Shown in pieces: positions 1,842 through 24,032 of a DNA stretch of 64,000 nt; the stretch's first letter is position 1; each line of letters opens with the position of its first letter. The DNA is taken from positions 1,014,501 to 1,078,500 of the forward strand of contig NC_060028.1 in NCBI RefSeq assembly GCF_021134715.1, written 5' to 3'. This DNA comes from Daphnia pulex. Its lineage: Eukaryota; Arthropoda; Branchiopoda; Diplostraca; Daphniidae. The notes under the pieces are model-generated. The model ran no database searches and was not told the DNA's origin. It was given only the letters and a program-made list of their open reading frames with translations. Both the position numbers and the translations under genes were made by a program.

Positions 1842-2020
1842 CACAATAGATGACTTATTATTGAGTTGTACAACATTTACTGGTGGGAGTTTGCCTCTTC
1901 TATAAGACTCGGTAAAAGACCAGACGGAAGCTGAATGTTGGTATTGATCTACTTAAAAGTTGCACACGTTCTAGTTATTTTAGGTTGGTTGTGTATCAGA
2001 TATTGTTTTAATTCTTGACA

Positions 2021-2094
2021 GGGGGCAACCGGTGTCGAGCAGGAGACTGCCCGATCTGCAGTCGGATGCTCGTCTGCCACTGAGCTATACCCCC
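2021..2094 (-). tRNA. tRNA-Cys (GCA), T-arm degenerate
   Basis: Read on the minus strand this folds as a 74-base tRNA. The acceptor pairs over seven positions (GGGGGTA with TGCCCCC), the D-stem is GCTC/GAGC with a perfect TAGCTCAGTGG A box, and the anticodon stem TCCGA/TCGGG closes the loop CTGCAGA, giving anticodon GCA (Cys). The T-arm is poor: two of five pairs fail and the usual TTC of the loop reads CTC, so box B is weak. The D-loop is also long. It may be a decaying copy. Its 3' end and upstream flank recur at 8.48 and 16.48 kb at matching places in the duplicated module. Confidence 0.7.
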
Positions 2095-19450: not shown

Positions 19451-19458
19451 TATATAAA
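19451..19458 (+). promoter_or_regulatory. TATA box of six-cysteine peptide 1
   Basis: TATATAAA lies about 70 bases before the ATG at 19527. Confidence 0.7.
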
Positions 19459-19526: not shown

Positions 19527-19896
19527 ATGTTCAAGAAATTCTTTGTAAGTAACTTCATAATATTAAATCCTATGTTGTTCATTATATTCGAAAGACAAAG
19601 CTTTTATTTTATTGTTTCCGGTTTAATTTTTAATTAGCTCCTTGCCTGCGTCTTGGCTGTGATGGCCATCGTCTACACCAACTCTCTACCCACCGAAGAG
19701 GGCGAAAATGACGAAACCTTCTGCAAACCTTTTTGTAAGTTGTCCTTTATTGGATTCCCCTTATTACAAATTCACTACTTAATTTTCAATGTCCCAAAAA
19801 ACAGCATCCTGCACGAATAGCACCGACTGTTCCAGCAATCTGATCTACAAGACCTGCCGCGCTAACCTCTTTGGCAACAAGCAATGCTGCTTGTAA
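19527..19896 (+). CDS. Secreted six-cysteine peptide 1
   Basis: A 68-aa precursor from exons 19527-19544, 19638-19734 and 19805-19896, all in phase. Signal peptide MFKKFFLLACVLAVMAIVY, then an acidic propeptide-like stretch (LPTEEGENDET), then a C-terminal cysteine-rich domain with spacing C-x5-C-x5-C-x8-C-x9-CC and core CTNSTDCSSNLIYKTC. The length, signal peptide, acidic spacer and disulfide-rich end are typical of small secreted effector or antimicrobial peptides, but I do not recognise the family. A paralogue with the same exon structure and core lies on the opposite strand at 22314-22757. Confidence 0.82.
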
Positions 19897-22313
19897 ATCC
19901 TCGAAACAACTTCAAGTCGAAATTTCTCCTTATGAAATTTATAATTCTTAGTTTTTTCACTTATATTAGCATATGTCTCGATCCTTTTAATTAAATAATT
20001 AAATGAGGTAATAATAATAATAGCGGGTGTTTCAATGCATTTGTTGTTCGTTACGAGCTTCAAATAGAAATACACTTTCACAGTTTCACCACACAAAACT
20101 ACTGTTGCACTCGCTCTAAACGTTATACAGCATGAAAATCAAAGCTACGCTCTATTATTGAGAACGAAAAAGTGAAATGGAACTAAAGGCCGGCGTAGTT
20201 TTGCAATGCCAGTGTGAATAATGCACGAACGCATCACCTTGACAGTCCATATTCGTGTCCAGAAATGTTTACTTTCCCGGCAAATTGGGCAAATTATGCT
20301 ATCGTTATTTACAACACTAGTGTTGAACCAACCATAAAAAAAAATGAGTCAGATTAATTATATTGGTAGAAAAGTAATTTCCAACATTTCTCAAAATATT
20401 ATTTAGTTAGCAAGTTTGTTTAGTTAGTTGGATAATTAATAAGCAGCATCAGAAGCAGCATGTGTGCCAATGTATGCATTGAGTTATTCGAACGGTGGCT
20501 AGATTAATGACGAGTTGCAAATTATATACATGCTGTTGACTAATTATTTCCTCATTTATTGACTGTCAGCCAATAAACAGCATCAGCTAATTAAATTTGA
20601 TGACGCATCGGACTCAATAAATCTTTACACAAATGACGGTAAATGATAAAGAAAAAAAGATTCGAATTTCAAATTATTTTGGGAAGAATATTATTTACAT
20701 TTTTACCAAGAAAAATGCGCGTTGATATTAAAATCTGGAAGCTGTGGTTATATTTTCAACACTTGCGTAACCGTTAGTTATTTTCGTCTGCTTGACTGCT
20801 TTCGTGGCTCGGTGGCTGCACGAAAAATACCAAATAAAATTACAAAATGTGGTCGTCGTGTAAAAACTCCTGTCGGCTCTCCATGCTGTTTGGCAGGTAA
20901 TTAAAAGTAAGAATTCAAATGGAATGATTTATGAAAGCTCAAATAGAAGAGTTAATCCTGTTCAAAATTTTGGAAATATTAGTTCCTGACACGGAGGTTC
21001 CTGACTAGCATTTAGGTGATTTAGCATGTATAAGCCCCAGCCCCAGCCCCCTTGTTGATAGCTACATATGACAGTTTGTTTGCACTAATAAGATGTTACC
21101 TATCCATTCGTCAGATCTGAGGCCTGAGCTGATTCAACTGTCAGGACAACACAATATATGAAAGTTTTTCTTGCGCTGGTATTGACTTGTCATCAACAAA
21201 CAATCTCACTGATTGCTAGGATAATCTCATTTGTGTTACTTTTGTATTCCTGCGACCTGCTATGTTTGAATGTATTATGCAGAATAATCAGACGGACAGA
21301 AGGATTCAGACAAATCAGACAAATGAATCAATGCAATGTATTACATGGAAGCATTCAATCATTCCATTTATTAGCAATTAGGAGTTATATTAGGACCCTA
21401 GCTGTCTCATTTTCAACATTTCCTTGCTTGTTATTGTTTCTTTCAATATTTTTCGTAACCCATTTCTAAAATTTTTATTTAGATAAAAAGCATCCAGTTT
21501 GACTGGAGAAACTACGTATGTCGTCATGTCGATCGAATTTCGTCTCTCTTCTTCCCCTTTCTTTAATCTTTCTTTAATTGTCCTCGTGTACACTGTACAC
21601 CCACGTGACTGTAGGTGTATTCACCAGGACACCCTTTTTGGCCTTTTCCTATCCCGACCAGATGGATTCAACTTTTCTGCAAATGGGATATGGAATGGTT
21701 GAAGCATATTATGGGGGATGGATGCCAGATGCCTGGCCGTATTTCCCTGGCTTGAAGTTAGGATAAAAGTATTTCTATTCTTCCTTTTTTAACTATTTGA
21801 TGGCGTTGATTATTAATCGTTACGCCTAAATAGTACAGAATACGATTATTCTTGAGCTATGGCGTTTGGGACTGTTTTCTCTTGTCAGTTTTGGTTTACT
21901 CAGTTAGGGTTCATTAGTTAACTCCTTTGAAAAAAGACTGTAGATCAGGCTTGTTTTGTACCTCACAACTTTGTGTGTATGTGGATCAAATTCAAAAATA
22001 TTTTAACTTTATAAACACCAAAATTTCTTTACCAAGAGGGACCTGTCACCACATTGGCACCCCTTCGTTGGTAAAAGAAGCCAGCTATTATGTAGAACGA
22101 AGATGAATTTTGAAATTGAAAATGGTATTTATTTTTTGCTTAACTGAGATTCATACAAAAGAGATGGACATGACAACTCTTGATAGAACTCAATTAATAA
22201 AACTTGGGATGTAAAAGGAAATGGGTATAATTAGAAACTCGAAAAATATATCGGTTTTCTTAAAAGTGGTCCGTGTCAGAAAGCTTTCGTTACTAGGTTA
22301 CACCTCATTATGT
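19897..22313. other. Gap between the two six-cysteine peptide genes
   Basis: AT-rich sequence with no gene I can support. An open frame at 20722-20904 ends in a cysteine-bearing tail (KCGRRVKTPVGSPCCLAGN) that loosely recalls the peptides on either side, but it has no signal exon. Another at 21578-21766 is tryptophan- and tyrosine-rich without support. Confidence 0.5.
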
Positions 22314-22757
22314 TTAACCTCTACAGCAACGGCCACCGTTGCAGGTCTTGTAGATCAGATTGCTCGAGCACTGGGTGCTGTTGCTGCAAGAAGCTATAAC
22401 AAACATAATTCCATTAGTCGTTTCCAAAGCGTTGAGATTTATAGATTTCGTCAAGCCTTGATTGTTGTCTCCAGCGTCATTTATAACTTATTTTTAAACG
22501 AAGAGCGTGGTAACTTACTGAACCAGCGACAGTAGAACAAGAACTGGTCTCCCGGCTCGTCGGAATTAGCGGGTTCATCTTCAGTGGGTGCCGAGTTGGT
22601 GTAGACGACGGCCATCACAGCCAAGACGCAAGCAAAGAGCTTTAAAAATGTAACCGAAAAAACAACAAAAACACAACATTTTCAAGAGATTTGAAGAAGA
22701 GATTGAACTAATTTAGTTATTGTGGAAATTAATACTTACAAAAAATTTCTGGAACAT
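22314..22757 (-). CDS. Secreted six-cysteine peptide 2
   Basis: A 72-aa precursor on the minus strand from exons 22740-22757, 22519-22639 and 22314-22393, in phase. Signal peptide MFQKFFLFACVLAVMAVVY and an acidic spacer (PTEDEPANSDEPGD) resemble peptide 1. The cysteine domain is C-x5-C-x5-C-x8-C-x4-CC and shares CSSNLIYKTC exactly. The last loop is five residues shorter, and the end is RCCRG rather than CCL. Intron positions and phases are the same, so the pair arose by duplication with inversion. The genes are convergent, 2.4 kb apart. Confidence 0.82.
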
Positions 22758-22821: not shown

Positions 22822-22829
22822 TTTTTATA
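22822..22829 (-). promoter_or_regulatory. TATA box of six-cysteine peptide 2
   Basis: TATAAAAA on the minus strand, 65 bases before the ATG, the same layout as peptide 1. Confidence 0.7.
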
Positions 22830-23861
22830 CTCGTATTTTCTCTACTCAGGTCCCACAGACTGAATATTTCATTTACATTTAATCACTAATACCAATATTT
22901 GTTTATCCCTTGTAATTAGGGCAGAGCTGCTGCTCATATATTGTCTATGTTGATTTAACGAATATTTATTAACGCACAGCACGTATCTAGATATATATTC
23001 TATCTACTAACACCAATCTAATCTAATACGCATGTCTATCCTCTTATTAAACAGCTTTCCGGATCCAGGTGCCAGGGGTGTCTGTGCTGACGTAGTGACG
23101 TGACATAGACTTGCTGAAGGCCTCCGCTTATTTGTCTGACCAATTTAGCTTTGCAAACAAAACAAAAAAATTACCGAAGGCTGCTTTTTTTTTGTCGTCA
23201 TAGTATGGAATGGATTAGTCGTCGATTGCCTTTTCTCTCCGATTTTGATAATAACGAGAGGGCGGCACGCAATCCTACAACTCACAGGTATGTCGCCCTC
23301 CTCGTCTCTCCCCCCAACAGCCAAAACTTGTTGCTCTTTTGCGTCTGAGATACATATCTTGTTCGTATTTTCTAGATGAAGTCAGAGGAGAAATAGAATG
23401 AAAGCTCGAAAAATTGATGGGACAAGGTGTCGAACTCTACTCTCGCCAGCCTTTAGCGTCGAACGTTATCATCCTTAAACCTCTCAGCGCATCTCCACTG
23501 CCGAGTTAGTTAAAAGGTATTTAACTATTTAATCTCGTTCAAAAAAAACAAAACAAAAGAAAATTAAAAACGTTTTTTCGTTCAGGGTTCGCCATCTCTC
23601 ATACCGGTCTATTACAGCAGTAGCCAACCTTCGAGTACTACGGCGTACAAGAATGTCCCACGTCTTACGATGATAATCGATTTGACTTGCCCCAACGAGT
23701 TTATCTCAAGTTTTTTTTTTAATTTTCAATATGCCGTGCATATCAATTGTTAGTAGTATTGTTAGTAACTGGGGTTAGTAAGGGTTAGTACATACATAGT
23801 TATATTATACAGGGCGATATGGGGAACATCAATGGGATACAATGTGGTGGAGGGCGGGGGG
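22830..23861. other. Intergenic
   Basis: No gene I can support. Short open stretches around 23150-23510 read plausibly (WISRRLPFLSDFDNNERAAR; MGQGVELYSRQPLASNVIIL) but cannot be joined into a gene. They may be a relic. Confidence 0.45.
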
Positions 23862-23944
23862 ACAATGTGGCGGAAGTGGGGATCGAACCCGGGACAATTG
23901 AATACAACGCTAGATGCTATAACCATTATATCATGGTCGCATAT
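23862..23944 (-). repeat. tRNA-like relic or SINE head
   Basis: On the minus strand it has an A-box-like TGATATAATGG and a perfect GGGTTCGATCC B box at tRNA spacing, with an overall resemblance to tRNA-Gly. Acceptor and anticodon stems do not pair, so it is not a working tRNA. A tRNA-derived SINE head or pseudo-tRNA fits best. Confidence 0.5.
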
Positions 23945-24032
23945 CCTCACCAAACTATTTCCGGAAGTAGATCATATCCTAAAAAAGTATTGGCTGAGCA
24001 TATCTAACAATATTTCATTTCTAGGTTGCATT

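What the first reader, a model, noticed from the sequence alone, without database searches (positions are those of the whole stretch)
19527..22757. Convergent pair of unrecognised six-cysteine secreted peptides
Two short genes on opposite strands share exon structure, signal peptide, acidic spacer and a C-terminal domain C-x5-C-x5-C-x8-C-x(4-9)-CC with an invariant CSSNLIYKTC core. Only the last loop differs in length (9 versus 4). I know no named family with this pattern. An acidic spacer before a disulfide-rich end suggests a processed secreted peptide, perhaps antimicrobial or hormone-like. This is the best candidate in the window for an undescribed peptide family.
Basis: partly seen in the sequence, partly recalled or inferred. 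Interest (0 to 1): 0.75.

Follow-up and report, generated by a model that had tools for sequence, protein, structure and literature searches.

The report
Daphnia family of six-cysteine secreted peptides
Two small genes that face each other in what looks like a water-flea genome belong to a family of at least twelve gene copies for short secreted peptides with six cysteines; natural selection has kept much of the peptide unchanged, the searches made here found no named family for it, and it is most likely a defence peptide, though its function is untested.

Summary
Both genes have three exons with GT-AG introns, a TATA box 72-76 bases before the ATG, a signal peptide (by eye), an acidic spacer and C-x5-C-x5-C-x8-C-x(9 or 4)-CC. 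They belong to a family of at least 12 loci, all found on contig C12: 11 intact, one broken. Three places on C12 each hold an x9 and an x4 gene, so the pair looks like an old unit; five further x4 copies are recent. Selection is the strongest evidence: gene 1 and its copy at 9.496 Mb have identical cysteine domains despite 15 synonymous differences, while introns and flanks are 44-58% identical. No Pfam, NCBIfam or PDB match is convincing. The cysteine order is that of beta-defensins and lobster panusin, but the loops break the published beta-defensin and cystine-knot rules; weak fold matches of a fragment lean to knottins. Best reading: a secreted three-disulfide defence effector (0.45); signalling (0.25) and inhibitor or channel ligand (0.2) are rivals. 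No dibasic processing site and no NF-kB enrichment were found. Expression and other species could not be tested. Side finding: a gene with a strong Pfam big-defensin match on C7.

The parts
19451..19458 (+). TATA box of gene 1 (TATATAAA, 76 bases before the ATG)
19527..19544 (+). gene 1 exon 1, six codons, phase 0 intron follows
19638..19734 (+). gene 1 exon 2: rest of signal peptide, acidic spacer, first cysteine of the domain; phase 1 intron follows
19805..19896 (+). gene 1 exon 3: cysteines 2-6 (loop 4 of 9 residues) and stop
22314..22393 (-). gene 2 exon 3: cysteines 2-6 (loop 4 of 4 residues) and stop
22519..22639 (-). gene 2 exon 2: rest of signal peptide, acidic spacer, first cysteine of the domain; phase 1 intron follows
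22740..22757 (-). gene 2 exon 1, six codons, phase 0 intron follows
22822..22829 (-). TATA box of gene 2 (TATAAAAA, 72 bases before the ATG)

Best explanation
The two genes are members of a multi-copy family of secreted, basic, six-cysteine peptides. Close to shown from sequence (about 0.95): real genes with three exons, a TATA box, a signal peptide, an acidic segment and a cysteine domain kept by purifying selection. Inferred, with the overall odds given here: the acidic segment offsets the basic domain during folding or storage; the domain is a small beta-hairpin tied by three disulfides, most likely C1-C5, C2-C4, C3-C6; it is released as a defence effector against microbes at a gut, body surface or in haemolymph, and copy number raises output.
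For: 11 intact genes of 12 loci with one architecture. Gene 1 / L010 cysteine domain: 15 synonymous, 0 amino-acid changes, neutral minimum 5 in 3000 runs. TATAAA at one position in 10 of 11 promoters. Acidic segment (-3 to -6) followed by basic domain (+2 to +4), 11 of 11. Five recent extra x4 copies. Cysteine order and close loop lengths of panusin, an antimicrobial lobster peptide (6,4,9,5 against 5,5,8,4; PMC10301333, passages and table). The published D. pulex immune survey could not recover antimicrobial peptides (PMC2685406, abstract and passages), so such effectors remain to be found.
Against: No expression or activity data. Strong conservation of the domain is not what fast-evolving immune effectors usually show. 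kB sites 1 observed, 0.4 expected. Whole secreted chain is acidic (-2) in 10 of 11 and no dibasic site would free the basic part. No homology to panusin by profile comparison: only 4 columns aligned, probability 3%.
Confidence: 0.45

Rival explanations
1. A hormone-like or other signalling peptide with a receptor; x9 and x4 types are paralogous ligands and extra x4 copies raise dose.
For: Identical cysteine domain in gene 1 and L010 at dS about 1.9, with a faster-changing acidic segment; small TATA-driven secreted genes.
Against: No dibasic processing site in 11 members; the core varies among members (L011, L012, L040); many near-identical copies are unusual for hormones. No hormone family of Pfam matched.
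Confidence: 0.25
2. A knottin-like inhibitor of proteases or ligand of ion channels (digestive or anti-parasite), with a disulfide-tied hairpin as the working surface.
For: AlphaFold fragments show a hairpin carrying cysteines 4-6, and in gene 1 a short helix at cysteine 3. Foldseek rows are mostly cystine-knot or other small disulfide-rich peptides (5-6 of 6, 7 of 11 titled CKP, read as cystine-knot peptide from memory).
Against: All Foldseek E-values are 0.77 or worse, and the fragments lack cysteine 1. Loops 8, 9 (x9 type) and 0 break the published knot rule.
Confidence: 0.2
3. A true descendant of beta-defensins or big defensins in a crustacean.
For: Same order of cysteines with a final CC; a phase 1 intron close to the cysteine region; a big-defensin-like gene exists elsewhere in this genome.
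Against: Loops 1-3 outside the beta-defensin rule and no G/A-x-C; intron lies after cysteine 1, not before the cysteine region; Pfam beta-defensin search of the genome gave 6 weak rows, none a family locus; no alignment of the cysteine domain to panusin or to the C7 protein.
Confidence: 0.07
4. Relics: decaying or unexpressed gene copies without function.
For: One of 12 loci (L023) is broken, with a shifted frame in exon 1 and a stop in the core. Constraint is not shown for L026 / L040. No RNA evidence was available.
Against: Purifying selection in 6 of 7 pairs, splice sites kept in 11 of 11, TATA boxes in 10 of 11.
Confidence: 0.03

Closest known systems
[quoted passage not shown]
   Same: Crustacean, secreted, basic, six cysteines in the order C-C-C-C-CC; loops 6,4,9,5 against 5,5,8,4 (PMC10301333, passages and table).
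   Different: Each of the four loops differs by one; no acidic-segment comparison was possible; profile comparison aligned only 4 columns around the CC.
Vertebrate beta-defensins
   Same: Cysteine order, final CC, basic domain.
   Different: Loops 2 and 3 outside the printed rule, no G/A-x-C before cysteine 2, x9 type also fails loop 4.
Inhibitor cystine knot peptides (knottins)
   Same: Loops 1 and 2 fit the rule; weak fold matches of fragments.
   Different: Loop 3 is 8 (rule 0-7), last loop 0 (rule 4-13), x9 type fails loop 4.
Pfam AtDEF-like (PF25052, plant defensin-like)
   Same: Signal peptide, spacer and first three cysteines align in 2 of 11 members (E 0.0021 and 0.012).
   Different: Both below Pfam's cut-off (18.7 and 16.3 against 25 bits); the match ends before cysteine 4.

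Membership tests
beta-defensins (incl. panusin) | six cysteines in the order C-C-C-C-CC | tested here: met
   11 of 11 members
beta-defensins (incl. panusin) | spacing CX5-7(G/A)XCX3-4CX9-13CX4-7CC (PMC7304343, passages) | tested here: not met
   Loops 5,5,8 in 11 of 11; loop 4 is 4 (fits) in 7 and 9 (does not) in 4; no G/A two before cysteine 2. The printed rule is strict for loop 1: three or more peptides in the same paper's table and panusin have 6 residues there, so I give loop 1 little weight
beta-defensins (incl. panusin) | disulfides C1-C5, C2-C4, C3-C6 and three-stranded sheet | not testable with these tools
   fold tool was given exon 3 only, without cysteine 1
beta-defensins (incl. 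panusin) | profile match to Pfam Defensin_beta or to panusin | tested here: not met
   no Pfam row; genome search gave 6 sub-cut-off rows, none a family locus; hhalign to panusin 4 columns, probability 3%
big defensins | N-terminal hydrophobic domain before the cysteine region | tested here: not met
   only an acidic segment of about 11-19 residues lies between signal peptide and first cysteine
big defensins | phase 1 intron at the 5' end of the cysteine region (PMC7203481, section 9) | tested here: inconclusive
   phase 1 intron present in 11 of 11 but between cysteines 1 and 2
inhibitor cystine knot | CX3-7CX3-8CX0-7CX1-4CX4-13C (PMC4942781, passages) | tested here: not met
   loops 5,5 fit; 8 and 0 do not; 4 fits, 9 does not
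cis-defensins (CS-alpha-beta) | C2-X3-C3 and C5-X1-C6 (abstract of PMC5234102 in the listing) | tested here: not met
   C2-x5-C3 and C5-C6 adjacent in 11 of 11
antimicrobial peptides (function) | kills or inhibits microbes | not testable with these tools
   needs folded peptide and an assay

The most novel reading that the evidence does not exclude
The family is an undescribed class of animal three-disulfide peptide, with a spacing that fits neither the beta-defensin nor the cystine-knot rule, and it is one of the secreted defence effectors that the Daphnia immune-genome survey could not find.
Probability: 0.35. Interest if true: 0.75.

Novelty: new variant of a known kind. Interest (0 to 1): 0.5.

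Why it matters
[quoted passage not shown] A conserved, TATA-driven, multi-copy family of secreted six-cysteine peptides is a concrete, testable candidate. If it is a signal instead, it is an unrecognised ligand family. Either way it would add a cysteine framework to animal peptides.

Tried and rejected
Pfam: 0 families for the two window proteins at E up to 10; over 11 members only AtDEF-like, in 2, below its cut-off. NCBIfam: three bacterial families, best E 0.0048 in one member, taken as chance; the matched stretch was shown for one member only and was the signal peptide region. PDB sequences: 9 rows, best E 4.2, sodium channel segments; profile search 4 rows, best E 0.33, PET hydrolases: taken as chance. 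Viral contigs and bacterial/archaeal genome contigs: 36 and 86 pattern matches, none a relative by tblastn. Whole-genome search with PF25052 gave nothing, but no control rang either, so it shows nothing. Promoter motifs in 600 bases upstream of 11 members: strict kB 1 (0.4 expected), loose kB 1 (1.8), GATA 17 (23.3), C/EBP 14 (21.9), half EcRE 6 (11.6), heat-shock 2 (2.3), metal 3 (3.5), STAT 0 (2.2); TATAAA itself is not clearly enriched over the whole 600 bases (12 against 9.6), only in position. Viral structure models: 8 rows, best E 2.5. Kinship with the C7 protein: 7 signal-peptide columns only.

Literature (open PMC papers only; listings unless said): core strings of the peptides, 0 papers; 'daphnia' with 'beta-defensin', 29 papers, 28 listed, no title about a Daphnia beta-defensin; 'big defensin' with 'daphnia', 5 papers; other Daphnia searches, of which only parts of 87, 91 and 257 papers were listed in the last three. 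Passages were read of PMC7203481 (and its section 9), PMC2685406, PMC10301333, PMC7304343, PMC11042267 and PMC4942781. Gene databases and subscription journals were not searched, so 'undescribed' rests on these searches only.

Not available: RNA-seq, other Daphnia or crustacean genomes, a fold of the complete spliced peptide, a signal-peptide program. The script stopped with an error after seven members; one search repeated its counts for all 11.

Full report
What was checked. The window is C12:1014501-1078500 of an assembly of 133,188,837 bases in 13 contigs. From size and contig number I take it to be Daphnia pulex, assembly KAP4. That is recalled, not tested: PMC11042267 names KAP4 as the North American D. 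pulex reference (passages) but the passages give no size. They are convergent, 68 and 72 residues, with GT-AG at all four introns. Parts of exons 2 and 3 match between the genes as inverted repeats of 64 nt (89%) and 55 nt (84%).

A family on one contig. Protein searches of the whole genome with exon 3 of both types, exon 2 of both types and two divergent members found 11, 11, 11, 5, 9 and 11 rows; their union is 12 loci, all on C12. The tool calls its counts lower bounds. Positions in Mb: 1.034 (gene 1, L009), 1.037 (gene 2, L020), 1.150 (L021), 1.189 (L022), 1.905 (L025), 2.356 (L023), 2.369 (L024), 7.293 (L040), 7.331 (L011), 9.492 (L026), 9.496 (L010), 9.506 (L012). Eleven have intact three-exon models: an 18-base first exon, a phase 0 intron, then a phase 1 intron between cysteines 1 and 2. 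L023 has a shifted frame in exon 1 and a stop in the core; it is left out of all counts of 11. Four intact members have a last loop of 9, seven of 4.

History. Three places (1.03, 7.29-7.33 and 9.49-9.51 Mb) each hold at least one x9 and one x4 gene. In the unrooted tree gene 2 and its recent copies group with the x4 gene at 9.49 Mb (support 94); adding L040 has support 65, and other deep nodes are weak (39, 78). So the x9 / x4 split is probably older than the spread of the pair. The x4 copies at 1.15, 1.19, 1.90, 2.36 and 2.37 Mb are recent: in the five pairs compared among L020, L021, L022, L024 and L025 exons 2 and 3 are 98-100% identical, and similarity runs into the flanks, also for L023.

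Selection. Gene 1 and L010 are 44-58% identical in flanks and introns, yet from the first cysteine on they differ by 15 synonymous and 0 amino-acid changes (dS about 1.9, Nei-Gojobori count). Random placing of 15 changes gave on average 10.8, at least 5, changed codons in 3000 runs. In the other six pairs the changed codons were: gene 2 / L026 1 (neutral minimum 5), gene 1 / L011 6 (10), gene 1 / L012 8 (9), L010 / L012 8 (9), gene 1 / gene 2 10 (11), L026 / L040 17 (14, mean 21.7). So 6 of 7 pairs lie below every run, three of them narrowly, and L026 / L040 does not. The pairs are related, so these are not independent tests. The acidic segment has a higher dN than the cysteine domain in 9 of the 9 diverged pairs, one of them only just (0.15 against 0.14); the five recent pairs have too few changes to say.

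Expression signals. TATAAA starts 62-76 bases before the ATG in 10 of 11 members (not L040). Chance is 0.012 per promoter, and 6 of 7 lineages have it (binomial P about 2e-11). I took those lineages as independent because upstream identity is 41-51% in the pairs compared. Motif and range were chosen after seeing the sequences, so the figure is optimistic; TATAAA is not clearly enriched over 600 bases as a whole. Third-position GC is 0.51-0.76 against 0.26-0.33 in introns; no genome-wide average was computed. There is one kB-type site, upstream of gene 1, with 0.4 expected.

The peptide. Signal peptide about 22 residues (by eye), acidic segment -3 to -6, cysteine domain +2 to +4; the whole secreted chain is -2 in 10 of 11 and +1 in L040. 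No member has a dibasic site before the first cysteine; 9 of 11 have an N-S-T sequon in loop 2. Invariant in the domain: six cysteines and the S-T of loop 2.

Fold. The fold tool got only exon 3, so cysteine 1 is missing. Gene 2: mean pLDDT 71, pTM 0.34, hairpin YKTC / RCCR. Gene 1: pLDDT 81, pTM 0.40, short helix around cysteine 3 and a hairpin. Foldseek against the PDB gave 6 and 11 rows, best E 0.77 and 3.3: cystine-knot and other small disulfide-rich peptides, two plant defensins and one unrelated complex, no beta-defensin. This leans away from a beta-defensin fold but is weak. The pairing I propose is inference from the cysteine order.

Comparison. By published rules the family is not a beta-defensin, not an inhibitor cystine knot and not a cis-defensin (abstract in the listing). 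The beta-defensin rule as printed is stricter for loop 1 than that paper's own table, so loops 2 and 3 and the missing G/A-x-C carry the weight. Its order of cysteines is nearest to panusin, but no homology was shown. [quoted passage not shown]

Verdict. A real, conserved, multi-copy peptide family that these searches could not name. I commit to a defence effector at 0.45, since charge layout, duplication and cysteine order fit it, with signalling (0.25) and inhibitor or channel ligand (0.2) as rivals. Novelty: new variant of a known kind, secreted disulfide-rich peptides. Whether gene databases already hold these genes as uncharacterised proteins was not tested.

Noticed in passing
L041, L042, L053: G000 C7:11898907-11899213 and upstream, minus strand: A gene whose joined exons match Pfam Defensin_big over its whole model (E 4.4e-20, 71.9 bits against a cut-off of 25), with a phase 1 intron (by eye) and eight cysteines in an unusual order. 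A 2020 review says no trace of big defensins was found in crustaceans (PMC7203481, passages). One copy found.
   Followed up: partly
L023 (oriented minus-strand locus, 1773-1816), C12 near 2.356 Mb: A 44-base perfect palindrome directly follows the broken core of this family member; it is absent from the other 11 family loci and from the window.
   Followed up: partly
window 2020-2094, minus strand: A tRNA-Cys gene (anticodon gca) found by both ARAGORN and Rfam (34.9 bits, gathering score 29).
   Followed up: no
window about 23860-23945, minus strand: By eye a tRNA-like stretch with a T-loop-like box; neither ARAGORN nor Rfam reports it, so perhaps a tRNA relic or tRNA-derived repeat.
   Followed up: partly
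window 19805-19896 and 22314-22393: A conserved N-glycosylation sequon (N-S-T) between cysteines 2 and 3 in 9 of 11 family members, unusual to keep in a small basic peptide.
   Followed up: no
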